Source: Uloborus plumipes (lineage: Eukaryota > Arthropoda > Arachnida > Araneae > Uloboridae). From it: DNA of 64,000 bases. Below are positions 2,284 to 50,338 of the stretch, piece by piece. The stretch's first letter is position 1. Each line of letters begins with the position of its first letter. The notes beneath the pieces were generated by a model. That model searched no databases and was not told where the DNA came from. It saw only the letters and a program-made list of their open reading frames with translations. Where the stretch lies: assembly GCA_038373865.1 (NCBI GenBank), contig JAXGGA010003393.1, positions 1 through 64,000 on the forward strand, given 5' to 3'. The position numbers were made by a program, and so were the translations under genes.

Positions 2284-3610
2284 CGAGGGTTGTCCGTAAA
2301 GTAAGTTTCCCTATTTTTTTCGCATAGAATCGATGTTTTATTCACATCAAGTAGTACATCATTAAAAAGCTTAGACTTTTATCTATTTTTCTACGTAGTA
2401 CCCTTTTATTTCGATGCCTTTTTCATGCGCGTAACCATCTTTTTTATTCCTTCGTCGTAGAAGTTTCCCGCCGCAATGCGAAGGTAATTCAGGACCTCAT
2501 CTTTCAGCTCTTCTCCGGTTGCGAAATTCGTACCTCCGAGATGCTTTTTCAAACCAGGGAAGAGATGATAATCGCTTGGGGCCAGATCCGGGCTGTAGGG
2601 AGGGTGAAGGACTGTCTTCCACCTGAAATTCTTAATGAGCGAGGTGGTTTTGCCCGCTGTATGCGGACGAGCACTATCTTGATGAAAACGGACTCCGCTA
2701 GACAGCATGCCCCTTCTCTTGTTCTGTATGGCTCTTCTAAGGTTTTTCAGAGTTTTGCAGTAGCGGTCAGCATTTATTGTTGTACCAGTGGGCATAAGTT
2801 CACGCAACAATAGACCTTTCCTGTCTCATAACACCGTTGCCGTGATTTTGCCGGCAGACAGCATTGTTTAAACTTCCGCATCGATGGCGAATGCGGATGT
2901 TTCCACTGCTTTGACTGTTCCTTGGTTTCTGGTGTCGCATAGTGAACCCAAGTTTCGTCCCCAGTGACTATGGAGTCCAAAAATTCTTCACCGCCGGCTT
3001 CGTAGTCCACGATAAATTTGGTAGCCGCTTCAACACGTTGTTTTTTGTTGTCCTCTGTGAGCATTTTTGGGCACCCACCTGGCACAAACCTTCGAATATC
3101 CTAAATGTTCCGTTAAAATCTTGTCGATAGATGTTTTGCTGACATCTGGAATCATCGCACTAAGATCTCGAACCGTCATTGTGTGATCTGCCTGCATTGC
3201 CGCTTCCACCCTCGCAATTGTTCCATCTCTAAGCGATGGGCGTCCGGATCGCTGTTCGTCATGGACGTCTGTTCGCCCTTCTTTAAACTCTTGGATCCAT
3301 TTCCGCACCATTTGCACACTTATTCATCCTTCTCCATAGACTTCTGTAAGTTGGGTATGGATTTCTGTCGCCGAATTTCCTTTAGCACACAAAAAACGAA
3401 TCACTGATCTCACTTCGCATTTGGCGGGCAAAGGAATCGGAAGCTCCAGTCTTAATGGCTGCCAAAACCAAACTTACGGTCACAGTGAGTAAACTGGGGG
3501 GGAATGTGGAGGGGAGGAACCAAGCTATACGCTAGGGTTGCCAGATTGCGCGTTACAGCGATTCACGTGCTTGTGGAAATTAGGGAAACTTACTTTACGG
3601 ACAACCCTCG
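2284..3610 (-). mobile_element. Mariner-family DNA transposon, full length but inactive
   Basis: The ends form a perfect 30-bp terminal inverted repeat starting CGAGGGTTGTCCGTAAAGTA, flanked by TA dinucleotides at 2282-2283 and 3611-3612. Length is 1327 bp, usual for mariner (about 1.3 kb). The transposase lies on the minus strand and is broken. The perfect ends combined with a damaged gene suggest a moderately recent insertion that could only be mobilised in trans. Confidence 0.93.
2406..3440 (-). pseudogene. Broken mariner transposase (D,D34D)
   Basis: Cut-and-paste transposase of the Tc1/mariner superfamily. The N-terminal helix-turn-helix region is recognisable upstream (about 3430-3318: KCEVRSVIRFLCAKG) and continues as VRKWIQEFKEGRTDVHDE and RSGRPS. 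The catalytic triad is visible: first D in VTGDETWVHY (residue 43 of the middle piece), second D in HQDSARPHTA (residue 45 of the last piece), third D in SPDLAPSDYHLFP (residue 80). There are 34 residues between the second and third D, hence D,D34D. A TGA stop lies at 3324-3326. The middle piece (3085-2774) is in a different frame from the first and last pieces, so at least two frameshifts occur, near 3030-3085 and 2774-2810. No functional enzyme can be made. Confidence 0.92.
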
Positions 3611-5222: not shown

Positions 5223-5236
5223 ATAACTAAAAAAGG
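5223..5236. repeat. Target-site duplication, left (retrozyme locus 1)
   Basis: ATAACTAAAAAAGG, identical to 6969-6982. It brackets the whole tandem-plus-inverted hammerhead repeat and marks it as one insertion event. Confidence 0.9.
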
Positions 5237-5253
5237 TGCATTACACTATACCA

Positions 5254-5338
5254 CCAACTCGGCTATTTCGATCCATGGACAGCTGTTTCGAGCTCATTGT
5301 GCTCTCATCAGCATGGAATACGAAAGTAGTCGAGTTGG
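5254..5338 (-). ncRNA. Type I hammerhead ribozyme, unit 1
   Basis: In the sense direction: CCAACTCG stem I strand, inner stem CCATG, core CTGATGA, stem II GAGC/GCTC, GAAA, palindromic CAGCTG as a very short stem III, cleavage triplet GUC (after the C complementary to 5278), then CATGG and CGAGTTGG closing stem I. All conserved core bases are present. Confidence 0.88.
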
Positions 5339-5526
5339 AGGCAAAAATCCTCTTATAAAGCAAAGAGAGCCAAAAAAAACTGGTAGCTAATGTAAAATTA
5401 GAATACCAGCGAGCGACCGCACTTAGTACGGTACAACTCGTAAATTTTTTAGGCAGAGCTCAAGGTATAAAGCAGTGAGTAACCACCCCTAAGCAAGGGC
5501 TAAGGCAGAAACATGCACTACACCGT

Positions 5527-5610
5527 CAACTCAGCTAATTCGATCCATGGACTGCAGTTTCGAACTTATTATGCTCTCATCAGCATGGCATACGAAAGTA
5601 GTCGAGTTGG
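5527..5610 (-). ncRNA. Type I hammerhead ribozyme, unit 2
   Basis: Core CTGATGA, stem II GAGC/GTTC (one G-U pair), GAAA, stem III palindrome CTGCAG, cleavage triplet GUC, inner stem I CCATG/CATGG, outer stem CAACTC/GAGTTG. Predicted cleavage is opposite 5550/5549. Confidence 0.88.
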
Positions 5611-5797
5611 AGGCAAAAATCCTCTTATAAAGCAAAGAGAGCCAAAAAAACGGGTAGCTAATGTAAAATTAGAATACCAGCGAGCGACCGCACTTAGTAC
5701 GGTACAACTCGTAAATTTTTTAGGCAGAGCTCAAGGTATAAAGCAGTGAGTAACCACCCCTAAGCAAGGGCTAAGGCAGAAACATGCACTACACCGT

Positions 5798-5881
5798 CAA
5801 CTCAGCTAATTCGATCCATGGACTGCAGTTTCGAACTTATTATGCTCTCATCAGCATGGCATACGAAAGTAGTCGAGTTGG
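5798..5881 (-). ncRNA. Type I hammerhead ribozyme, unit 3
   Basis: Identical to the unit 2 motif, displaced by exactly 271 bp. Confidence 0.88.
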
Positions 5882-6068
5882 AGGCAAAAATCCTCTTATA
5901 AAGCAAAGAGAGCCAAAAAAACGGGTAGCTAATGTAAAATTAGAATACCAGCGAGCGACCGCACTTAGTACGGTACAACTCGTAAATTTTTTAGGCAGAG
6001 CTCAAGGTATAAAGCAGTGAGTAACCACCCCTAAGCAAGGGCTAAGGCAGAAACATGCACTACACCGT

Positions 6069-6152
6069 CAACTCAGCTAATTCGATCCATGGACTGCAGT
6101 TTCGAACTTATTATGCTCTCATCAGCATGGCATACGAAAGTAGTCGAGTTGG
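6069..6152 (-). ncRNA. Type I hammerhead ribozyme, unit 4
   Basis: Identical to the unit 2 motif, displaced by a further 271 bp. Confidence 0.88.
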
Positions 6153-6339
6153 AGGCAAAAATCCTCTTATAAAGCAAAGAGAGCCAAAAAAACGGGTAGC
6201 TAATGTAAAATTAGAATACCAGCGAGCGACCGCACTTAGTACGGTACAACTCGTAAATTTTTTAGGCAGAGCTCAAGGTATAAAGCAGTGAGTAACCACC
6301 CCTAAGCAAGGGCTAAGGCAGAAACATGCACTACACCGT

Positions 6340-6423
6340 CAACTCAGCTAATTCGATCCATGGACTGCAGTTTCGAACTTATTATGCTCTCATCAGCATG
6401 GCATACGAAAGTAGTCGAGTTGG
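6340..6423 (-). ncRNA. Type I hammerhead ribozyme, unit 5
   Basis: Same motif as unit 2. Only the sequence after the hammerhead differs in this unit: near 6538 a few bases are missing and AGGTATAAAG becomes AGCTATAAAG. Confidence 0.88.
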
Positions 6424-6606
6424 AGGCAAAAATCCTCTTATAAAGCAAAGAGAGCCAAAAAAACGGGTAGCTAATGTAAAATTAGAATACCAGCGAGCGA
6501 CCGCACTTAGTACGGTACAACTCGTAAATTTTTTAGGCACTCAAGCTATAAAGCAGTGAGTAACTGCCCCTAAGGAAGGGCTAAGGCAGAAACATGCATT
6601 ACACCG

Positions 6607-6691
6607 CCAACTCGGCTATTTCGATCCATGGACAACTGTTTCGAGCTCATTGTGCTCTCATCAGCATGGAATACGAAAGTAGTCGAGTTGG
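6607..6691 (-). ncRNA. Type I hammerhead ribozyme, unit 6
   Basis: Core CTGATGA, stem II GAGC/GCTC, GAAA, stem III CAGTTG (still self-complementary if G-U pairs are allowed), GUC cleavage triplet, stem I CCATG/CATGG and CCAACTCG/CGAGTTGG. Confidence 0.85.
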
Positions 6692-6826
6692 AGGCAAAAA
6701 TCTTCTTATAAAGCAAAGAGAGCCAAAAAAAACTAAGTACGCTCGCTAAGAGCTCACTGGTATTCTAATTTTACATTAGCTACCAGTTTTTTTGGCTCTC
6801 TTTGCTTTATAAGAGGATTTTTGCCT

Positions 6827-6911
6827 CCAACTCGACTACTTTCGTATTCCATGCTGATGAGAGCACAATGAGCTCGAAACAGCTGTCCATGGATCGAAAT
6901 AGCCGAGTTGG
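6827..6911 (+). ncRNA. Type I hammerhead ribozyme, inverted unit 7
   Basis: Readable directly on the plus strand: CCAACTCG at 6827, CCATG, CTGATGA at 6854-6860, GAGC...GCTC, GAAA at 6876-6879, CAGCTG, GTC at 6885-6887, CATGG, CGAGTTGG ending at 6911. Predicted cleavage is between 6887 and 6888. Its orientation is opposite to the other six units. Confidence 0.9.
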
Positions 6912-6968
6912 CGGTGTAATGCATATTTCTGCCTTAGCCCTTGCTTAGGGGCGGTTACTCACTGCTTT

Positions 6969-6982
6969 ATAACTAAAAAAGG
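6969..6982. repeat. Target-site duplication, right (retrozyme locus 1)
   Basis: ATAACTAAAAAAGG, a perfect match to 5223-5236. Confidence 0.9.
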
Positions 6983-9451: not shown

Positions 9452-9772
9452 TGTAAAAAATAGATGTTCCTTTTACAGTTTAATGCAGCTAATTTTACAG
9501 TAATAAACTGTAAAATTGCTTGTTTCACAGTTTATTACTGTGCATTTTAAAGTTTTAAACTGGAATCTCTGCTGCCAGTATGACATTGTTGTTTTTACAT
9601 TATAACATAGCTAATTTTATGGTTAAATTGCTCATTTTACAGTAATAAACTGCAAAATTGCTAGTTTTACAGTGATAAACAGTAAAATAGCTAGTATTAC
9701 AGTTTATTGCTCTTTCACAGTTTTAAACTGGAACCTCGGTTGCCAGTATTATACTGTGAAAACAACAGTTTA
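9452..9772. repeat. TTTTACAGT dispersed repeat, copy 2 (dimeric)
   Basis: Starts at CACTGTAAAAAATAGATGTT and ends near TATTATACTGTGAAAACAAC. Two tandem monomers are readable, with the CAGCTAATTTT landmark at 9486 and a related TAGCTAATTTT near 9608. Confidence 0.8.
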
Positions 9773-13262: not shown

Positions 13263-14360
13263 CGTTTTGGAATTTTTGGCAACGTATAGCGGCTTTTGAG
13301 TTAAGGAGCGTAATAGAACTTCTAAAAGAGCAAGTAGAATTGCTAAAAATTTTATAGTGCTATAATGTCTCGTTGAACGTGATTTTATTTATTTATTATA
13401 TTTATTTTTATTTATATATTTTCAACCCTATAACATTTGTAACGACTGTGAAACGTTTTAACTGTCGGCATGAAAAATCGAAAGAGAAAAAAGTCTCAAG
13501 TAAAATGATATCTTTATAGAATTTCAATAACTACCTAACAAATCAGTTTTGATTTGGAAATGTATAATATGTTTTGTTCAATGAACATAATTTCAATGTG
13601 GTTACTTTATTTTTCACAGAACTCGAAACTTAAGACGCGACAAATGCGAACCAATTCTTTCAAGAACAGTCTGAAGGAAAGTAAGTCAGTGTATAAAACA
13701 AGGAATAGAGTTCTGCTTTCTTTAGGCAAAAATGCGTAAATCAAGACGACAATCCTGAAGCATTTTAGAGTAGGAAAATCTACAAAAAAATATCAGATGA
13801 CATGAAGGGACATTTTCTGCATACAAAAAGAAAGTGCCAATAAAAAGAAAGAGGCTAGGAGTGTGCAAATATGGCTCTCTTTCTTATACTAAGGTGCTTT
13901 CAAAGTCAAAATGTTTAAAATGGTCTAGAATAAAGAAAGAAAAACTGGTGTGTTTTACCATCAGCAGCCTTGGCACATGTAGGACAGTTTTTTGTTTTAA
14001 ACATCTCAATTTCCCAAAACTATGCTGATGCTATAAAGCCGCATTAACACATGACGTTGCTGATAGTTCTGTAATAAATGATACACTGTTACAACTTCGG
14101 GTTGAATATGGCGTTTTTTAGGGTGAAACGTTGTAGCACCTATGGTACCTCCTGCAGGCACTTCATAGGGAGTCAAACGGAACCGTATGTCTCCCTTTAG
14201 GATGTCATAGAGGGCAGTAGGTTACCGTATGAAGCTTAATGGCCCCTTTAAAGGTTTCATAGGGAGTCAAACGACACCTTTTAAGGGCTGCCGCTGGTGT
14301 ACAACGTAAAAGATGCCGTATGCGACTCGCAGTATTAACCTTGTACGATACATGATGGAC
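13263..14360. other. Interval without gene; short internal repeat
   Basis: Mostly AT-rich. At 14160-14290 the phrase CATAGGGAGTCAAACG occurs twice (about 14165 and 14258) next to two further CATAGAG/TTTCATAG variants, so this is a small degenerate tandem repeat. No gene is supported. Confidence 0.45.
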
Positions 14361-14735
14361 GCTATATTGTCTTTTGCTAGAGCTGAATAATCATTTAAGG
14401 AATGCCTTTAGTAAAGGCGGACGTATATTCAGAAAAAAATACGAGGATTATAAGATAAGAATGGCAACATAGGGAATATTTTGTGCTATATTGTGTTTTG
14501 CTAGAGCTGATTAATCATTTAAAGAAAGCCTTTAGTAAAGACGGACGTATATTCAGAAAAAAAAAATACAAGGATTATAAGATAAGAATGGTAACATAGG
14601 GACTATTTTGTCTACGCTATATTGTGTTTTGCTAGAGCTGAGTAATCATTTAAGGAAAACCTTTAGTAAAGGCGGACGTATATTCAGAAAAAAAAATACG
14701 AGGAGTATAAGATAAGAATGGCAACATAGGTAATG
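14361..14735. repeat. Tandem repeat, three copies of about 125-131 bp
   Basis: Copies begin at GCTATATTGT at 14361, 14485 and 14616. Each has TTTTGCTAGAGCTGA, AATCATTTAA, CCTTTAGTAAAG, CGGACGTATATTCAGAAAAA and ATAAGATAAGAATGG in order. Copies differ by small changes. Confidence 0.9.
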
Positions 14736-16799
14736 TTTTTAGGCTTTTAAAAGAATTTTCAATTTTCCCGCTTTATTTTGGGTTTGTAAATAGCAAATCT
14801 TAGTAATAGCGATTATGCGTATGAAAAAATAATTCATTAGAAATACATATAAGGAAGCTTCGTGACGGCTAGAAAATACTACTTTTTAATTAACATGACA
14901 TTTATCACAAAAAAATATAAAAAAATAATGCCAGTCGTGAATAGTAGGTATTCAAAATGGTTTATTCTATAATTTCTTTAAACTTTTTTGCCTGTTAGAC
15001 TCTGAAGAAGAATTTACCACGTTCACTTCAAAATTAATTGAATTCAACTACCACATGGTATTTAAATCTATTCATCTGTCTAATTTTGCTCGAATATCCT
15101 CGTGAATGTCATTTTATGACATTTACTGAACCTGGAAACGAGTGCAGAAACAACCTACATAATAAAAGAGGGAAAGAACATAAAAATTAAAACAAAGGAA
15201 TGAAATTTTTCACTTTTTCGAACAACAAATTCCTCCCGGCAACAAAGAAGAAAAGAATTTTTCAATCTGCTTTAGAGAAAGGAGGGAAAAAAGAATGACG
15301 CGATAAGGAAGTAAAGAAATACAGGTAACTTTCACCTTATTTGCATGTTTTTTTTTGAATATATTACGAGAATATTTTTGAATTATCCGCTTTGTAGAAA
15401 GGAATAGAGTCGAGTTTCATTTTTTCTAAAAGCAATTACAAAAGGTATGAAATATCAGTTGTGGATCTTGTCTTATATTTTATTTTTATTTTATTATTGT
15501 TTTAATGCATCATTAAATGAATTCGTTTTTCTTATGTTTCGACTTAGGGTAACAATTGAAGGGCTTGGAGAATGATGGCGCTATGTTACATTTTGAAAAA
15601 TGAGCACTTTGGATAATGGTAAGCAATGGGTACAGGTAAGCAAATAAAACTTGGTACATGAAAAAGTAGATGTCATTAGACCAGTTTCATACGCACACTA
15701 ACGACAAAACCAGAAAACAAAAAAGCTGCAACAACTGCAACAATAAAACTTTGAACTTTAATTACTCATAATTTCTGTTTTGTCACTTAACCCCTTCATC
15801 TCCCAAGCCCTTCAATTTTGACGTAATTTAGACCAGCCATTTCTCAGCCTGTGGCCCGGTGGACCGGCACCGGTCAGCAGACAAAAATGACCCGTCTCAG
15901 AGATTTCAAGTTGTCCAAGTTAAATAAAAAATCTTTACTAAAAGAAAATATAAAAGTATAATATCCCAGTGACAGATATGTTACGTAACTTCTATGATTA
16001 GTTTTCATACTTGTCTACGATTTTTCGGAACTATTTAATAAATAATGTATAGTTAATACAGTAATTATTTATCTTTATATTTAATTATTTTTCGTGACAG
16101 CTCTTCAATATCAAGTAAAGTTACATTTATTTATCATAATTGCTATTATTTTTTGTAAACCAGGGGGCCCCGCCCCCCGCTCGCTTCGATCGCCAACCCG
16201 AATACGGCATCTCCGCTGATAAAGAGAATAATGACCCCCCTCCTATTTTTAAGAAAAATAATCATTTTATATAACTGAAATGCTCACATTCCCTTTAAAA
16301 GTACAGTAACACTTCCTTTGCAATTTTACAATTTAAAATAATTCGCCAAATAAATAAAAGATCTTGATCCTAGTTAAACCATCAAAATTAAACAAAAAGG
16401 AGCACAAAATTGTAGCCAGATTAGTTACACGTCTAGAGAAAATTTTACGACGAAACAGCATTCGTAATTTGTATTTGTCTTAAATAAAACTGTCGCTACA
16501 CCACAAAAAGAAGTTGCTCCTGAAAATTGTATGAGCTTCGTGTCTACATAAAACATCAAAAGTGTTTTTTCTTTCTTCGGCGGAGGGTGTCTCCGTCTAT
16601 GTTTGGGAAGGGAGGAGGGTCATCCTAATTTACCGCCCCGTGTGACACCCGTGCAAGGAACGTCACTGCATCAGGCACATTGTTGAAATATCTTTCTAAG
16701 TAATATACAGTGTATTACAGTCCTCTATAGTGAAATTCTTGGATCACATATAAATCAGCACTTTTCCCACTGAAAAACTGCAGAAAAATCCAATAAGTC
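14736..16799. other. 2 kb interval without gene
   Basis: AT-rich. Near 15831 the sequence GACCAGCCATTTCTCAGCCT followed by GTGGCCC resembles a hAT-type terminal sequence, but no partner end was found. Short GC-rich pieces at 16160-16240 and 16580-16670 look like repeat fragments of unknown type. Confidence 0.4.
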
Positions 16800-18469: not shown

Positions 18470-18630
18470 AAAAAATAAATATTGTTTTTACAGTATAATA
18501 CAGCTAATTTTATAGTAATAAACTGTAAAATCCCCAACTTTACAGTACTAAACTGTAAAATTGCTAATTTTACAGTTTATTATTGTGCATTTTACAGTTT
18601 TAAACTCTAACCTCTGCTGCCAGTATTATA
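18470..18630. repeat. TTTTACAGT repeat, copy 3, left part
   Basis: First monomer of a dimeric copy, ending at CCAGTATTATA where a transposon is inserted. It continues at 19216. Confidence 0.85.
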
Positions 18631-19215
18631 CAGGGTTATTCTAAATGATGGACCCCTTTTTAAAAATTCATATTTATTAAAGTACAAATCCGAAAGGAAC
18701 AATCTTTATTGCAATGTAAAGATGAAATTTCAAATTTTTTTTAGTGCAAAATTTTTTTCTGAAGCTGCAAAAAGAGGGCGCACCAGTAGAGTTTGCACCG
18801 GATTAGATTATAATTTGATTTACTGGCGCAGCTGAGGAAAATGGCGACCGTGGACCAAAAGGTTTTCTGCGTTCTTCAGTTTGTAAAAACTGCGTCACAA
18901 ATTTTAGTGCAGCGGGCATTTCGTGCCAAATTTGGAATTAAAGTCCCAACTAAAAAAAGCATAAGCCGTTGGTTTAAGCAGACTGGTAGTGTTTGTAAAA
19001 GGAAAAGCAGAGGAAGACCGCCTGTGTCACAAGAAGAAGTCACACGTGTGGTGAGGAGAAGTCAGCACGCGGTGGACACATTGAACATTTATGTTTATAT
19101 ATGAACAAAAATTTCAAATCTCCCCTTTCCGTTGATATAAAGATTGTTAATTTTTTTTGAAAACTTTAATAAATATGAATTTTTAAAAAGGGGTCCATCA
19201 TTTAGAATAACCCTG
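18631..19215 (+). mobile_element. Tc1/mariner-type deletion derivative with 53-bp TIRs
   Basis: Perfect 53-bp inverted ends starting CAGGGTTATTCTAAATGATG, flanked by TA at 18629-18630 and 19216-19217. It is inserted exactly in a TATTATACTGTTG site of the TTTTACAGT repeat; removing it and one TA restores the continuous repeat. Only 585 bp long, with the N-terminal end of a transposase fused to its extreme C-terminus, so the catalytic middle is deleted. Confidence 0.92.
18841..19103 (+). pseudogene. Truncated DUF4817-type transposase
   Basis: Starts ATG at 18841 (MATVDQKVFCVLQF). It contains the helix-turn-helix-like segment VQRAFRAKFGIKVPTKKSI, then SRWFKQTGSV and RGRPPVSQEEV, a pattern typical of arthropod transposase N-termini annotated DUF4817. 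After VVRRSQ the frame changes: the alternative frame reads ARGGHIEHLCLYM and stops, resembling the family's C-terminus. No catalytic domain remains, so it encodes at most a DNA-binding fragment. Confidence 0.8.
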
Positions 19216-26023: not shown

Positions 26024-26741
26024 CGAGGGCTATCCAGAAAGTAGATTACGTTTTCGTCTGTGTCCGCTAGGGGCGGGGCTAGCGCGGCCATCTTGGGGTC
26101 AGAGCGTTGCGCAGCTCAGTCGGCATCTAGCCGTGCTAGTGAGAGGTTCGTGCTGTGCTCTGTTCAGATACTGTGACGGTTTAAAATGTCTGCGTTAATT
26201 GAAAATCCCTCTAGCTGCGAGGTGCGTGCAGTAATAAGGTTTCTGACTGCAAAAAACTGTAAACCGATAGAAATCTATCGGCAGCTTTGTGAAGTGTATG
26301 GGGACAACATTATCACTGAAGGTGGAGTGCGTCAGTGGGTCATAAGATTTAAAAATGGCCGAACCAATGTTCACGACGAGGATCGAAGTGGGAGACCCAG
26401 CATAGTGACTGCCGAACTTGTCGAAAAAGTCGATGCTAAAGTCCGTGAAAATCGAAAATTCACAATAACGGAACTTTCTTTGAGTTTTCCAAAAATTTCG
26501 CGAAGTTTGTTGCACGCTGCAAGAAGAGGTAACGAAGTGGTTGAAGGCGCAGGCGGCCGAATTTTTCGACGAAGGAATTTCCAAGCTCGTACATCGCTAC
26601 GATAAATGCCTTAATTTGTATGGTGACTATGTAGAAAAGTAGTATTTGAGTGTGGCTTTCATCTGTATATAATAAAATTTGTTTCCTATACTTTGTTTAT
26701 TTTTTATTCCAAAACGTAATCTACTTTCTGGATAGCCCTCG
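26024..26741 (+). mobile_element. Mariner internal-deletion derivative (718 bp)
   Basis: Inverted ends start CGAGGGCTATCCAGAAAGTA and include AATCTACTTTCTGGATAGCC on the right, with TA flanks in a short TA repeat. The element keeps both ends of a mariner transposase gene but lacks its middle, so it can move only if a related transposase is supplied. Confidence 0.92.
26186..26644 (+). pseudogene. Mariner transposase, catalytic region deleted
   Basis: ATG at 26186 gives MSALIENPSSCEVRAVIRF, then VYGDNIITEGGVRQWVIRF and DEDRSGRPSIV, the typical mariner paired helix-turn-helix N-terminus. After SLSFPKISRSLLH the frame shifts. The alternative frame reads LKAQAAEFFDEGISKLVHRY and KCLNLYGDYVEK followed by a stop at about 26642, the usual mariner C-terminus. 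All three catalytic aspartate motifs are missing. The gene is the product of an internal deletion. Confidence 0.9.
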
Positions 26742-26751
26742 TATATATATA

Positions 26752-28262
26752 CAGTGCGTTTCGAAATGATAGGTCCACCCTTATTTTTCAAAATTTCGAC
26801 TCTTAATTGAGAATAAGAATCACTTTTTTTAATAGTGATTATATATCTGTAATTGTTAAAACTATGTTTGATGAAATTTCTTAAAAATAAATCATTTCTT
26901 CTTATTTAATGCAAATTTTCATTTTCAGACCGTTTCAAAGGGGTCCGCCTTCAGAACTTTTGGCCCAACCACGTTTATTTCCAAAAATTTGCACAAGTAT
27001 CGTTGCTTAGTCTTACTACGGTATTATGCTTGCTGCTGTGGAGGTATTTAGACAGATTTGAACAGCACTTTGTAGTCAAACAAAACGGGTTGTCGTTGCA
27101 GTCTTTCGCTGGTTGTGCAGCGGAAAATTGATGCATTTAAACAGCCTGGAAAATCGAATAGAGAAACAGGTAAGTTATTAAACAGATCACAAAGCGTTGC
27201 AAACAATTTTTTGCTATTTAGAGAAATGCTTATAGCAGTAAAAAATCATCTGGCCGCCCATCAAAAGTGACCCCCCGAAAACGAAGCACTATCGTAAGAG
27301 ACCTAAAATCTGGAAATAATGAGCATATCCACTTTGGGCAAGCAACTGAACCCTTCAATATCAAAATCTACAGTCCACAGAGCGGTAAAGAAGTTCTGCA
27401 ATTTAGTTTACGGGAAAAGAAAAGCGGCTCCGAAATTGACTAAAAAGCACAAAGAAAAGAGAGTGAAATTCGCGCAGGAAGTGATGTCCTGGAAACAAGA
27501 TAGGCATCGTGTGATATTCAGTGATGAAAAGGAATTCAACTTGGATGGTCCAGATGGTTTTTCATTATTACTGGCACGGTGGTTCCGTTATGGTGTGTGC
27601 CCGATTCAGAGGGACAGGAAAAATTGATATAGCATTTGTAGACAATGGTTTGAATGCTGCTGGCTATAACAAGCTGTTTGAACAATTTTTCTTCCACAAT
27701 CAGAACCCATTGGGGGCTCATTCTTCATGTTCTAACCGACTAATGCTCCTCTGCACTCTGCAAAGTCCACTTTTGAATGGTTTCTGGATAATGTTGTACA
27801 TATTATCGATTAGCAACCTTACAGCCCCGACCTGAATCCAGTAGAAAACATATGAGGTATACTCGCAAGAGCGGTATATGCAGGCGAAAGGCAGTACAAC
27901 AGTACTGCAAACTTAAAAAGGGCTATTTCTTCCGAATGGTCAAAAATTGGGACAAATTGTTTTCAAAAACTTGTAGAAACTATGCCAAATAGGATTTATG
28001 AGCTTATTCAGAAAAAAAATCAGAAAGCTTTCTTATTAATTCAACGTTTATTTGATGCTTGGTTCAGTGGACTTATCTTTTTGAAACAGCTGTTTCATCT
28101 AATGTTAGTTTCCCTCATTATTCCTATTATTTTAAAATTATTTATGAGCTATTTTACATTGAATGAAGTAATGTAGTTTATAAAATAGTACTTTGTACAC
28201 AATACAACCTTTTTTACCAGCATAACTTTCGTTTTTGCTGGTGGACCTATCATTTCGAAACG

Positions 28263-33690: not shown

Positions 33691-34380
33691 ACTTTAAACT
33701 TCATACCAAAAACTCCAGACAAAAATCACATGGCAATTTTAAGTTTTAGAAATACATAATTATACCTTACTTCATAAGAAAAATATAGCTTCATTATTCT
33801 ATTTTTAGATATTAATTGCCAAATTTATGTAGTGTTAATAGGTTTTTTGAAACACTATATTTAACACTTAGACTATGGGATTGGGACAGCCAGGGGATTG
33901 TGTTTTTGGGTGCTTAGATACTTTCTAGAAAAAAAAATGAAATTGTTATCACTCCAAATACAATTGGGACACAAAGTATTAATGCTTTACTTGTATTAAG
34001 AGCGATAATTACTTTATTACACTTTATTATTTTTAAAATACTCAGTCCGGACAGCCAATTACCAGTTTACAGAGAATCGCCCAAATGCATATGTGTAGCA
34101 AATAATTAAACTTCTATGTGTAGATTAAAACGAAAACTATTTGTTTTGGAATTCTGCAGCAAATTGTACTGCAAAACTAAAGTGATACAGTTAAAATTGA
34201 GAAAAACACTTTCAGTGGCTCTATTTAAGAGACTTTGGGCGTTGGCTAGTTGAAACCTTGCAAATCAGAGGTTAGTAAATTCTCGTTTTTCTTCTTATAT
34301 ATATTTGATACTATTGCATTTTGTAATCCATTTGAAAATATTAAAAAACTAAGATAGTACACTTGTTGCTAGCCTTTTTT
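33691..34380. other. AT-rich interval, no gene seen
   Basis: Nothing supported. Confidence 0.45.
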
Positions 34381-34449
34381 AGCCTACTTTCCCGTTAAGA
34401 ATAAAAGAGAGACGAAAAAAGTATTAAAAGTAGCTTAATGCATCCAAAG

Positions 34450-34506
34450 AGTATCGCCAAGTCCAAAAAATATCGCCAAGTTAAAAAAATATCGCCAAGT
34501 TAAAAA
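34450..34506. repeat. TATCGCCAAGTT minisatellite (left arm)
   Basis: Three copies of about 20 bp: TATCGCCAAGTCCAAAAAA, TATCGCCAAGTTAAAAAAA, TATCGCCAAGTTAAAAAAAC. Confidence 0.85.
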
Positions 34507-36834
34507 AACAAAAGGTAAAATGAATATCGAAAAATTAAAAATTTGAAAGTAGGGTGTTGAGATGGGGAGTTTGTGTGTCGGTCGGTCGGTCTGTCTTTCT
34601 CCCGCCCCCCCCCCCCTTATAACTTTTGAATGAACAATCCGATTTGGACAAACATTTTTTTGTTGGAAATATCTCGGCGAGTACAGCTCATTCCCATATT
34701 TGATTTTTCAATTTGAACAGTTTTTGGTTCAACTTTGAACCGTTCAAGCAACCTTTCCCCACCTAATAACTTCTGAGTGAACCATCCGAATGGAATAAAC
34801 TTTTTTTTGTTGGAAAGATCTCGGAGAGGCTCATTCCCATATTTCGCTTTTTGATTTAAACCATTTTTTGTTCAATATTGAACCGTTCAGAAAAAAAAAT
34901 TAACATTAGCGCCTACGGGGAATTTAAGTTGAATGTTGATCCTGAACTTAAAGTCGGATTTCCTTCAAACTAACTTTGTAAGAAAATGGTTTTGATAAAC
35001 GTTTGTAAAGTACTTTTCTGAATAATCTTCTGTGAGGACTCTGATTTTGACTCCGACTCCGCAAACATGGCGGAAATGCAGGTTCAGAAAAAAATTACTG
35101 ACTGTGCAGACGATTTTTTTGTTTATTTATTCATTTGCTTTATTTATTTATTTATTATTATTATTTTTTTCTTTTGGCAGACGATTTTTTTTGTAACAAA
35201 AATTCTTAATTCATGAGCGAATTTTGTTCTTTATTTATATTTAACAACCGGCAACTGATTAAAAGTGAAATTCGAGACATTTTATCAACGGACGCGTTTT
35301 TCTTTTCTTTTCTTTTTCTTTCTTTCTTTGATAAAATGTGTTTTGATGTACTTTGTACTTTAAATTTTTTTTTGAAAACAATTGAGGAATTTTTCTACGG
35401 AAGAACTGTAACAGTTACATTCTTTAAAAGATGCGACAAAACTTTATTTATTCATTTATTTACTTTTTATGTGTCAATTTCATCTGATGAGAGGGGTATA
35501 TTTTGCTTTTAGAAATCAGCTTTAAGTGCTAAAAAGGTATGTTTGACATAATTTTTAGTCTCAGATAATCAAGATAATAATGATCAGATGCTAGAATGCC
35601 GATGTCGATGTACGGGAAAGTAGGCTCGTTTAGTTCTTGACAGAACTTCTTGTTTATAAAGTATTGTGAAAAAGCAAAAACAATAATGGTACTTGTACCT
35701 CATTAAAGAACTTGGAGGTTAAAAAATACCTTTATACACAGCAACTGTACTTGTTGTAAGTATTAAAAGAGTAACTTCATGGTGTACATAATATGAAACA
35801 ATGCGAGGTCCTAACAATGTACCTAGCTCAAGATTGGGAAACTGGAAAATAACAAGAAGTTCTGTCAAGAACTAAACGAGCCTACTTTCCCGTACATCGA
35901 CATCGGCATTCTAGCATCTGATCATTATTCTCTTGATTATCTAAGACTAAAAATTATGTCAAACATAACTTTAAAAGCAAAATATACCTCTCTCATCAGA
36001 TGAAATAGACACATAAAAAGTAAATAAATGAATAAATAAAGTTTTGTCGCACCTTTTAAAGAATGTAACTGTTACAGTTCTTCCGTAGAAAAATTCCTCA
36101 ATTGTTTTCAAAAAAAAATTAAAAGTACAAAGTACATCAAAACACATTTTATCAAAGAAAGAAAAAAAAAAGAAAAAAAAAGAAAAAAAAAACTCGTCCG
36201 TTGATAAAATGTCGCAAATTTCACTTTTAATCCGTTGCCAGTTGTTAAATATAAATAAAGAATAAAATGCCCTAGTGAATGAAACATTTTTGTTACAAAA
36301 AAAAATCGTCTGCCAATAATAATAATAATAATAATAATAAATTCAATAAAACAAATGAATAAATAAACAAAAAATCGTCTGCACAGTCAGTCATTTTTTT
36401 TCGGACTGTTTACTCAAAAGTTATTAGGGGTGACAGCTTGCTTGAGCGGTTCAATGTTGAATGAAAAATTGTTCAAATCGGAAATGTAAATACGGGAATG
36501 AAGTATCCTTGAAAAGTTCTTTCCAACAAAAAAAAGTTTGTTCAAATCGGACTGTTCATTAAAAAGTTAGTATCGCGGGACCGGTTATTTGAACGGCTCA
36601 AAGTTGAACCAAAAATTGTTCAAATCAAAAAATCAAATATGGGAATGAGCTGTACTCGCCGAGATCTTTCCAACAAAAAAAAGTTTGTCCAAATCGGAAT
36701 GTTCATTCAAAAGTTATTAGGGGGGACAGACAGACCGACCGACCGACCGACAGACCGACCGACACACAAATTCCCCATCTCAATACCCTACTTTCAAATT
36801 TTTAATTTTTCGATATTCATTTTACCTCTTTATT

Positions 36835-36912
36835 TTTTTAACTTGGCGATATTTTTTGGACTTGGCGATATTTTTTTTAACTTGGCGATATTTTTTGGAC
36901 TTGGCGATATTT
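36835..36912. repeat. AACTTGGCGATA minisatellite (right arm)
   Basis: Four copies of about 19-20 bp, alternating AACTTGGCGATATTTTTT and GGACTTGGCGATATTTTTT; the inverse of the left-arm array. Confidence 0.85.
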
Positions 36913-36980
36913 TTTCGATGCATTAAGCTACTTTTAATACTTTTTTCGTCTTTCTTTTATTTTTAACGGGAAAGTAGGCT

Positions 36981-38199
36981 AAAAACGATGAAGAATTCAA
37001 GATACAATCCGCTTCAGTTTTGATATGCTCAGACGTATCTAATAGTGTTCACTCTTTTAAGCTTCAGAAAGTTAAATACCATAGCCCAAAAGTATTATTT
37101 CTAGCTTTAATTTGAACGTGCAATTTATCAAAATGCTTCCCTAGGAAGCATTTACTACTTTTCATGTTTAAAGTCGCATGATATTAAAGCAAATACAGTA
37201 ACCGAATTTGAAAGGATTGCAGTAGACTACGCTAATACGATTGAAGTTCTTTAGAATCGCTTTGGAAAACATTCGCATTTTATACAAACTTATGTATGTT
37301 GTACAAAAATGCATATACTTTCCACGGTTTATGTTTTAATTAATATTTACGATAAATGTACCAATGCAGATAGACCCCGAGTCAGTCATTGTTGCGTCTA
37401 ATATGTATAGCACGTTACTTAGATTTTATTTTTAAACCAGATTGAACTTTCAAAAAAACACGAGATAAAAACCCATAAAGTGAGTTGAGGTATTACAAAC
37501 TTGATAGAATTTATTAATAGAAAAGCTGATAACCAAAGAAAGGAGTTTATTTCATACAAACGTAATCCGCCCACCCCCCTTCACGCTCAAAATGTTCTAC
37601 CTTAAAACAGTAACAATAAGAAGATTTAGCCCGTAGAAGAATTAATTAAACGAACTAATAAAATACTTTTGCTGTTGAAGTTTTGACACCCATCAATACA
37701 CTATTTATTGTTCAAATGTTGACCAGGACTCAAAACTTGACCTTCTTGGAAGAATTCTGCTTATCATTTGGGGGGTGGGGAGCTTTGATTTAGAAAGAGT
37801 GGATCGCTCAGTTATTAAAAAGCAAATATGATTTTAAATTTATTGTACTCAACCTTCTAATTTTTATCTTAATAACGTGAAGCTTGTCACAATGGTTATG
37901 AAAATTTTACAATAGTTTAACACTATACAAATCTTTTAATAAGCCCAATTGCTTGAGGCATAAGTAATGTTTTAACATTAGAATTTCAAACCTGAAATAA
38001 GTTTCTTATAAACCGTATACGATTTTCAGGCATCCTTTTAAGTGATTTTTTTAGCATAGAGATGTGGAAAGTTGACACCACGAGTTAGATTCTAAAAACT
38101 AACAAGTAAAGTTTATCGTTAGTTTAATTCAAAAACTAAATGTGTATTTCTTATCAAAATGAATACATTTCCTATCTATTTTTCCAGCATCCGAGAAAT
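36981..38199. other. 1.2 kb interval without gene
   Basis: AT-rich, no mobile-element ends or ORFs of note. Confidence 0.45.
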
Positions 38200-46705: not shown

Positions 46706-46718
46706 CATGATCTTTATA
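46706..46718. repeat. Target-site duplication, left (retrozyme locus 2)
   Basis: CATGATCTTTATA, identical to 47131-47143. Confidence 0.88.
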
Positions 46719-46780
46719 TACAGCAATGAGTAACCGCCTCTAAGCAAAGGCTAAGGCAGAAACATGCAATACACCGAAAT

Positions 46781-46860
46781 TCGACCATTTCGATCCATGT
46801 ACAGCTGTTTCGAGCTTATTCTGCTCTCATCAGCATGGAATACGAAAGTAGTCGAGTTGG
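46781..46860 (-). ncRNA. Type I hammerhead ribozyme, locus 2, GUA cleavage triplet
   Basis: CTGATGA, stem II GAGC/GCTC, GAAA, stem III palindrome CAGCTG, cleavage triplet GUA instead of GUC (still a permitted NUH triplet), then CATGG pairing with CCATG. The outer stem I is weaker than in locus 1 (only about TCGAC/GTCGA). Confidence 0.75.
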
Positions 46861-47035
46861 AGGCAAAAATCCTCTCATATAGTAAAGAGAGCCAAAAAAA
46901 CTGGTAGCTAATGCAAAATTCTCTTATATAGCAAAGAGAGACAAAAAAACTGGTAGTTAATGTAAAATTAGAATACCATTTACAATAGCTACCAGTTTTT
47001 TTGGCTCTCTTGGCTATATAAGAGGATTTTTGCCT

Positions 47036-47120
47036 CCAACTCGGCTACTTTCGTATTCCATGCTGATGAGAGCAGAATAAGCTCGAAACAGCTGAACATG
47101 GATCGAAATGGTCGAGTTAG
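47036..47120 (+). ncRNA. Hammerhead motif, locus 2 inverted unit, probably dead
   Basis: The core CTGATGA, GAGC/GCTC, GAAA and CAGCTG are intact, but the cleavage-site triplet reads GAA. The invariant U before the cleaved base is lost, which should abolish self-cleavage. Confidence 0.75.
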
Positions 47121-47130
47121 CGGTGTGTTG

Positions 47131-47143
47131 CATGATCTTTATA
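47131..47143. repeat. Target-site duplication, right (retrozyme locus 2)
   Basis: CATGATCTTTATA, a perfect match to 46706-46718. Confidence 0.88.
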
Positions 47144-50076: not shown

Positions 50077-50090
50077 CTAATAGTTTGCAT

Positions 50091-50324
50091 GCAATGAGTT
50101 ACCGCCCACAAGCCAGGGATAAGGCAGCCATACCATGGTTTGCGGATGTTCGCTGGTGATGGTAAATTTATTTTATCTACCAGTTTGAAGGCAATCTTGG
50201 CTACAACAAGAGGATATTTGCCTTCAGCTCGATCATTGGCTATTCCCGACTGAGGAGTTCAAAATAAGGAAGAAATCGGTCTCAGGATGTCAATGGTCGA
50301 GCTGTGAGTGTATTTGCTTCAGTT
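50091..50324 (+). mobile_element. Degenerate retrozyme-like element, locus 3
   Basis: Starts GCAATGAGTTACCGCCCACA and shows, in the order of locus 1, CTACCAGTTTGAAGGC, CAAGAGGATATTTGCC, a hammerhead-like core, and TCGAGCTG. Flanked by CTAATAGTTTGCAT (50077-50090) and CTAATGGTTTGCAT (50325-50338), a 14-bp duplication with one mismatch. Older than the other two copies. Confidence 0.65.
50225..50304 (+). ncRNA. Degenerate hammerhead-like motif, locus 3
   Basis: Outer stem I CAGCTCGATCATTG pairs with CAATGGTCGAGCTG; core CTGAGGA (50250-50256, allowed by CUGANGA); GAAA at 50272-50275; a GTC at 50289-50291. Stem II pairs poorly (GTTC with GGAA), stem III is not the usual short palindrome, and the stem next to the core does not close. 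Probably inactive. Confidence 0.45.
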
Positions 50325-50338
50325 CTAATGGTTTGCAT

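What the first reader, a model, noticed from the sequence alone, without database searches (positions are those of the whole stretch)
5237..6968. Tandem array of hammerhead ribozymes in one retroelement-like insertion
Seven copies of a complete type I hammerhead (CTGATGA, stem II, GAAA, very short stem III, GUC triplet, CCATG/CATGG stem I) lie in a 271-bp-periodic array bounded by a perfect 14-bp target duplication. This matches what is known of animal retrozymes: non-coding retroelements that make small self-cleaved, often circular RNAs. A predicted monomer would be about 271 nt. The core bases, stems and duplication are read directly; the retrozyme identity is inference from the family pattern.
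Basis: partly seen in the sequence, partly recalled or inferred. Interest (0 to 1): 0.92.

Follow-up and report, generated by a model that had tools for sequence, protein, structure and literature searches.

The report
Retrozyme array with Penelope-like insertion footprint
This is a small non-coding jumping element, of a kind already known from animals, that carries seven self-cutting RNA motifs; its mirror-image ends hint at which enzyme family copied it into the genome, which has been an open question.

Summary
A perfect 14-bp target duplication bounds the insertion. The window holds two more such insertions: 46719-47130 (two hammerheads, 13/13-bp duplication) and 50091-50325 (one diverged hammerhead, 12/13). 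The diverged copy keeps the fold through nine double-compensated pairs. The sequence features tested fit animal non-LTR retrozymes; self-cleavage, circular RNA and host could not be tested.

More informative: in all three insertions both outer ends are RNA 3' ends (head-to-head). One end lies 34-44 nt after the ribozyme cut, the other 78-81 nt. Penelope-like inserts show this anatomy (inverted pLTR, a short 'tail' on one end), and the longer end lies near where a purified Penelope protein starts reverse transcription. The array core repeats one 271-nt unit 4.27 times without a difference. I conclude: a new member of a known kind whose anatomy supports Penelope-like mobilisation, so far only a suspected helper. 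The rule rests on three insertions; the own genome could not be searched.

The parts
5223..5236 (.). Left target duplication of element 1, ATAACTAAAAAAGG
6969..6982 (.). Right target duplication of element 1, 14/14
5237..6734 (-). Element 1, tandem arm: sense RNA reads on the minus strand; six hammerheads (model matches 5236-5352, 5508-5624, 5779-5895, 6050-6166, 6321-6437, 6589-6705)
5382..6539 (-). Core of the array: 1158 nt identical to one 271-nt unit (type B) for 4.27 laps; 948 nt (3.5 laps) of it lie between sites that tell B from the outer type A
6735..6968 (+). Element 1, inverted arm with the seventh hammerhead (6813-6929); type A sequence
6924..6968 (+). 'Tail' of element 1: stretch between the two conserved end positions, present at this end only (start approximate)
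   Evidence: by alignment
46706..46718 (.). Left target duplication of element 2, CATGATCTTTATA
46719..47130 (.). Element 2: minus-strand arm with tail (hammerhead 46759-46874, triplet GTA) and plus-strand arm (47022-47138, triplet GAA, predicted inactive)
47131..47143 (.). Right target duplication of element 2, 13/13
50078..50090 (.). Left target duplication of element 3, TAATAGTTTGCAT
50091..50325 (.). Element 3, diverged relative: short minus-strand tail arm (about 50091-50141, no hammerhead) and plus-strand arm with one hammerhead (50210-50320)
50326..50338 (.). Right target duplication of element 3, 12/13

Best explanation
Element 1 is a non-autonomous retrozyme-type retroelement. Shown from sequence: tandem units of about 271 nt with intact type I hammerhead cores; a self-complementary 8-nt helix III; arms joined head to head with RNA 3' ends outermost; two conserved end positions, one on each side, in three insertions; target duplications of 13-14 bp. 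Inferred: a multimeric transcript is cut by its hammerheads, mainly pairing as dimers across units, into 271-nt monomers that a host ligase may close into circles. A Penelope-like protein (GIY-YIG endonuclease with telomerase-type reverse transcriptase) acting in trans cuts both DNA strands 13-14 bp apart and starts cDNA from each 3' end at one of two internal sites of the RNA. The two cDNAs are joined head to head. On one side the enzyme ran several laps round a type-B circle, or along a multimer, between two stretches copied from type-A RNA.
For: Ten hammerhead sites in three insertions with their own duplications. Fold conserved in element 3: 23 of 25 pairs kept, 9 double-compensated against element 1, 20 of 20,000 shuffles reach this; on the MAFFT alignment 7 compensated pairs against a mean of 1.9, 0 of 500. 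Helix III is ACAGCUGU or ACUGCAGU; two strands of the 45-nt core fold at -24.9, one at -9.5 kcal/mol. Ends at 41, 34, 44 nt and at 81, 81, about 78 nt after the cut, one of each kind per insertion. Penelope inserts have an inverted pLTR head to head and an optional tail on one (passages); a purified Penelope protein extends both strands and starts cDNA at two internal sites bounding the tail, one of them 85-92 nt after the cut by my subtraction. Core of 4.27 identical laps.
Against: Three insertions only, all in one window. No Penelope element found in the window (Pfam on 30 ORFs, 29 of them among the 79 of 80 aa or more; motif scan of 275 ORFs). Duplications are 13-14 bp here, 8-10 bp in the rotifer Penelope passages. 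In the in vitro work the hammerhead was not needed for insertion and no reads began or ended at its cut. Rfam scores stay under the gathering score. Cleavage and circles not shown.
Confidence: 0.62

Rival explanations
1. The insertions are solo or reduced pseudo-LTRs of an autonomous Penelope-like element of this genome, by-products of its own insertion and not an independent retrozyme family.
For: Same anatomy as Penelope pLTRs, which carry type I hammerheads.
Against: The units repeat every 271 bp with nothing between them, and the sense strand has no frame longer than 5 aa from M over four laps. The stem I internal loop and stem II are of canonical rather than minimal form; element 3 is nearer to a minimal one.
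Confidence: 0.17
2. A LINE moved the RNA: twin priming gave the inverted arm, and the shared ends reflect a LINE-recognised 3' end.
For: Long duplications are LINE-like (15 bp in Nematostella repeats, passage in PMC4918200); twin priming makes inverted arms (recalled).
Against: There is no A-tail at either end (sequence), and the second end of a twin-primed insert should vary, whereas both positions recur in three insertions (random ends would do so in 10 of 200,000 trials with positions and tolerance chosen after seeing the data).
Confidence: 0.12
3. The array grew in the DNA: an inverted insert like element 2 was expanded by unequal crossing-over or replication slippage, and no circular RNA template was involved.
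For: Outer parts are type A and the identical core is type B, as if the core had expanded inside an older insert.
Against: Against the type-B unit the right-hand outer part (6539-6734) shows 17 substitutions and 2 indels, so type B did not arise by copying the resident type A; a second template is needed. This does not exclude later DNA-level expansion.
Confidence: 0.25

Closest known systems
Animal non-LTR retrozymes (Cervera and de la Pena 2020, PMC7229834; parts 1-4 of 6 read)
   Same: Type I hammerheads in tandem repeats of about 150-450 bp, low GC, non-coding, target duplications longer than 4 bp.
   Different: Head-to-head inverted arms and two fixed end positions are not described there ('inverted' 0 times in the main text); circular RNA shown there, not tested here.
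Penelope-like elements with pLTRs (PMC3846280, passages; Anolis PAc, PMC11167929, parts 1-2 of 4)
   Same: Inverted head-to-head terminal units, a short extra tail on one end, type I hammerhead, internal start of cDNA.
   Different: No ORF, no RT or endonuclease; unit 271 bp; duplication 13-14 bp instead of 8-10 bp.
Newt and axolotl hammerhead repeats (in PMC7229834, part 3)
   Same: Very short helix III with a palindromic tetraloop, expected to work as dimers.
   Different: Repeats of 330-350 bp in large numbers; sequence not compared here.
Schistosoma W-elements (PMC8490949, passages)
   Same: Satellite-like repeats, some with type I hammerheads, one example with a target duplication.
   Different: Long satellite families on a sex chromosome; no tail or head-to-head rule reported in the passages seen.
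Plant LTR retrozymes (PMC4918200, passages; PMC7761336, passages)
   Same: Hammerhead retroelements thought to move through circular RNA.
   Different: Type III hammerheads, 4-bp duplications, primer-binding site and polypurine tract there.

Membership tests
Animal non-LTR retrozyme | Type I hammerhead with complete core | tested here: met
   Seven of seven cores in element 1; Rfam RF00163 22.3-26.5 bits at six sites, under gathering; compensated stems in element 3
Animal non-LTR retrozyme | Tandem repeats of about 150-450 bp | tested here: met
   271 bp in element 1; elements 2 and 3 have no direct tandem of the full unit
Animal non-LTR retrozyme | Low GC | tested here: met
   0.431, 0.398, 0.451; the paper gives under 45% in a legend and under 50% in the text
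Animal non-LTR retrozyme | Non-coding, no own reverse transcriptase | tested here: met
   Longest sense frame from M 5 aa; antisense frame of 81 codons, 78 from M, not studied; no RT found in the ORFs tested
Animal non-LTR retrozyme | Target duplication longer than 4 bp | tested here: met
   14/14, 13/13, 12/13
Animal non-LTR retrozyme | Self-cleavage and linear plus circular RNA | not testable with these tools
   No RNA data
Animal non-LTR retrozyme | Animal host with many copies | not tested
   Own-genome search not answered in 16 requests; three insertions in 64 kb
Penelope-type insertion | Head-to-head inverted terminal units | tested here: met
   Three of three insertions
Penelope-type insertion | Optional tail of about 30-40 bp on one end | tested here: met
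   End positions differ by 40 (45 without a 5-nt insertion), 47 and about 34 nt in elements 1, 2, 3; somewhat longer than 30-40 in two
Penelope-like element (autonomous) | ORF with RT and GIY-YIG endonuclease | tested here: not met
   None in the insertions nor in the ORFs tested
Plant LTR retrozyme | Type III hammerhead and 4-bp duplication | tested here: not met
   Type I order of motifs and 14-bp duplication

The most novel reading that the evidence does not exclude
Animal retrozymes are SINE-like parasites of Penelope-like elements. Their inserts are two-ended products in which each cut DNA strand starts cDNA at one of the two Penelope start sites of the retrozyme RNA, and the tandem part is a rolling-circle copy of a ribozyme-made RNA circle. 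The tail stem-loop, better kept than the rest between diverged copies, would be the signal the Penelope protein reads.
Probability: 0.5. Interest if true: 0.72.

Novelty: new member of a known kind. Interest (0 to 1): 0.5.

Why it matters
Which enzyme moves animal retrozymes is open: PMC7229834 calls Penelope-like elements a strong candidate, a 2022 guide says they may be the helper, a 2024 review names LINEs or Penelope-like elements. The three insertions suggest a footprint that could be checked in any assembled genome: are the ends of retrozyme inserts two fixed positions, one on each side, and are the arms head to head? Element 1 also looks like a frozen rolling-circle cDNA (4.27 identical laps).

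Tried and rejected
Rfam at gathering scores: no hit. The strong miRNA matches (MIR8562, MIR9563), both below their gathering scores, sit on the hairpin of the inverted arms and are read as artefacts of it. Scans for relatives: this family's hammerhead in viral contigs 0; a generic hammerhead in viral contigs 1 (L001) and in genome contigs 0; the tail motif in viral contigs 0. L001 has phage-like ORFs by my reading, no repeats and no Rfam match, so its match is taken as chance. Host from a DUF4817-like fragment: no homologue in the protein collection. Of the 18 relaxed-motif rows, ten are the sites reported; the other eight do not pass the stem test and were dropped (two of the ten, the plus-strand site of element 2 and element 3, do not pass it either but match the model and are homologous by BLAST). 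The distance that one search prints for the short end of element 3 (51) used a cut placed 7 nt too early; one search gives 44. The chance control for element 2 was run at spacing 426 (0 of 63,174); its true spacing is 425. I first placed a template change in the run of T; one search shows that the diagnostic sites do not allow so exact a placing, and I dropped it. Searches for this architecture in retrozymes; no listed title and no passage read describes it. Only open papers are held, and three that would matter are not (PMC4209133, PMC5785218, PMC8557442).

Full report
Observation. The array, the hammerhead motifs and the 14-bp duplication are present as stated. The array has 5.5 copies of a 271-bp unit. 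Six hammerheads read on the minus strand. The seventh reads on the plus strand in an arm, about 6735-6968, that is the reverse complement of the unit: 93% over 223 nt against the middle units, 97-98% against the outer copies. A strict motif with paired stems I and II finds eight hammerheads in the window, seven of them here; 200 dinucleotide shuffles of the window gave one hit in total. Rfam's type I model matches six of the seven with 22.3-26.5 bits, under its gathering score of 34, so nothing is reported at the default threshold.

More of the same. BLAST with the unit and a covariance model built from seven of the sites show ten hammerheads in three insertions: element 1 (5237-6968, seven), element 2 (46719-47130, two) and element 3 (50091-50325, one). 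Target duplications are 14/14, 13/13 and 12/13 bp. In element 2 one triplet is GTA (allowed by the NUH rule, recalled) and the other GAA, predicted inactive. The four weaker hits of the model (22.0 to 14.1 bits) are opposite strands of the same sites.

Is it a conserved RNA? Against element 1, element 3 differs at 11 of 25 stem positions on the 5' side and 12 of 25 on the 3' side, yet 23 of 25 pairs form and nine are changed on both sides. The internal loop TATT/AT in stem I and the length of loop II (seven) are kept. Pairing the arms of one with the partners of the other gives only 16 and 15 of 25. Reshuffling the changed 3' letters reaches the observed pairing in 20 of 20,000 trials. This alignment was made by hand, with one bulged base set aside. 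On the MAFFT alignment of seven sites, which shifts part of element 3, seven pairs are compensated against a mean of 1.9 in shuffles, 0 of 500 reaching it, and sliding the partners lowers pairing from 93.9% to 41% or less. All this rests on one diverged sequence: among the copies of elements 1 and 2 no stem pair counted is changed on both sides.

Helix III has two forms in element 1, ACAGCUGU and ACUGCAGU: one double change that keeps self-complementarity, as expected if two hammerheads pair through it. One outer copy has ACAGUUGU, self-complementary with G-U pairs. Two strands of the 45-nt core fold at -24.9 kcal/mol, a single one at -9.5. Amphibian hammerheads with such a helix III cleave better as dimers (PMC7229834, part 3).

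Monomer. The unit between two cuts is 271 nt with GC 0.432 and a circular minimum free energy of -71.1 kcal/mol. The longest sense frame from M is 5 aa; the antisense direction has a frame of 81 codons, 78 from M, which I did not study.

The insertion footprint. In all three elements the arms point outward, so both outer ends are 3' ends of the sense RNA. Measured from the cut, one end lies at 41 nt (36 without a 5-nt insertion), 34 nt and 44 nt in elements 1, 2 and 3; the other at 81, 81 and about 78 nt, the last by homology because the long arm of element 3 lacks the hammerhead. A few bases at the junctions are shared with the duplication and could shift these values by about 3-4 nt. Each element has one end of each kind. 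With random ends on a 271-nt unit, two further elements would share both positions within 8 nt in 10 of 200,000 trials; positions and tolerance were chosen after seeing the data. The tail stretch is 81% identical over 37 nt between elements 2 and 3, the other alignable parts 70-74% between element 3 and the rest.

What this matches. Rotifer Penelope inserts have pLTRs with an adjacent inverted pLTR, an optional 31-bp tail at the 3' end of one of them, and 8-10-bp duplications, though some copies have none; head-to-head is called the most frequent arrangement (PMC3846280, passages). A purified Anolis Penelope protein cuts and extends both strands and starts cDNA inside the RNA at two sites that bound the tail, described as 30-40 bp in Drosophila virilis. 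One site lies 111-118 nt into an ORF in which the hammerhead cut is at 26, so 85-92 nt after the cut by my subtraction (PMC11167929, parts 1-2 of 4). The ends here (34-44 and 78-81, up to about 85 with shared bases) agree in order and roughly in distance. The model is cDNA from both 3' ends of a staggered break, each at one of two start sites, joined head to head. Against it: in that in vitro system the hammerhead was not needed for insertion, it did not cut without the protein, and no reads began or ended at its cut.

The laps. From 5382 to 6539 the array is 1158 nt, or 4.27 laps, identical to one unit; 948 nt of it (3.5 laps) lie between sites that tell this type B from the outer type A. The outer parts on both sides share ten type-A bases and are 97% identical to the inverted arm, which is 93.5% identical to the core units. 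This reads as a cDNA that began on a type-A RNA, changed to a type-B circle or multimer, and changed back. A DNA-level expansion within an inverted insert is not excluded.

Limits. Pfam finds Mos1/mariner-, Tc3- and DUF4817-like pieces, which suit an invertebrate, but that is recall and no test. No reverse transcriptase was found in 30 ORFs given to Pfam (29 of the 79 of 80 aa or more after a low-complexity filter, plus one of 63 aa) nor by a motif scan of 275 ORFs of 55 aa or more. The own-genome search did not complete in 16 requests, so the rule on ends rests on three insertions of one window. Three scans of viral contigs and one of genome contigs gave one match, taken as chance.

Verdict. 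A new member of the animal retrozyme kind by the sequence features tested, with seven of seven cores intact and an undamaged duplication, and with an anatomy that points to Penelope-like machinery. The eight literature searches listed no paper that, by title or by the passages I read, describes this anatomy for retrozymes; several papers that might are not held.

Noticed in passing
34376-36985: Large nested inverted repeat of about 2.6 kb: 15 arm pairs of 43-215 nt, 74-98% complementary, with 147-bp and 19-bp tandem units inside; looks like a foldback element.
   Followed up: partly
114-320, 9493-9687, 18508-18560: A palindromic motif TTTTACAGNAATAAACTGNAAAA occurs 9 times (up to 2 mismatches) in three places, mostly in 30-bp tandem spacing, against none in 100 shuffles.
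   Followed up: partly
2409-3323 (-), 26177-26602 (+), 27307-27624 (+), 18814-19101 (+): Broken pieces of mariner/Mos1-like and Tc3-like transposases and a DUF4817-type helix-turn-helix fragment.
   Followed up: partly
14359-14739: Tandem array of three copies of a 131-bp unit, 89% matches, not identified.
   Followed up: no
5504-6556 (+): The antisense direction of the type-B unit is open for 81 codons in each lap, 78 from M; probably chance, not tested.
   Followed up: no
46866-46969: A 49-bp stretch of the retrozyme unit is doubled inside the minus-strand arm of element 2, perhaps a template slip.
   Followed up: no
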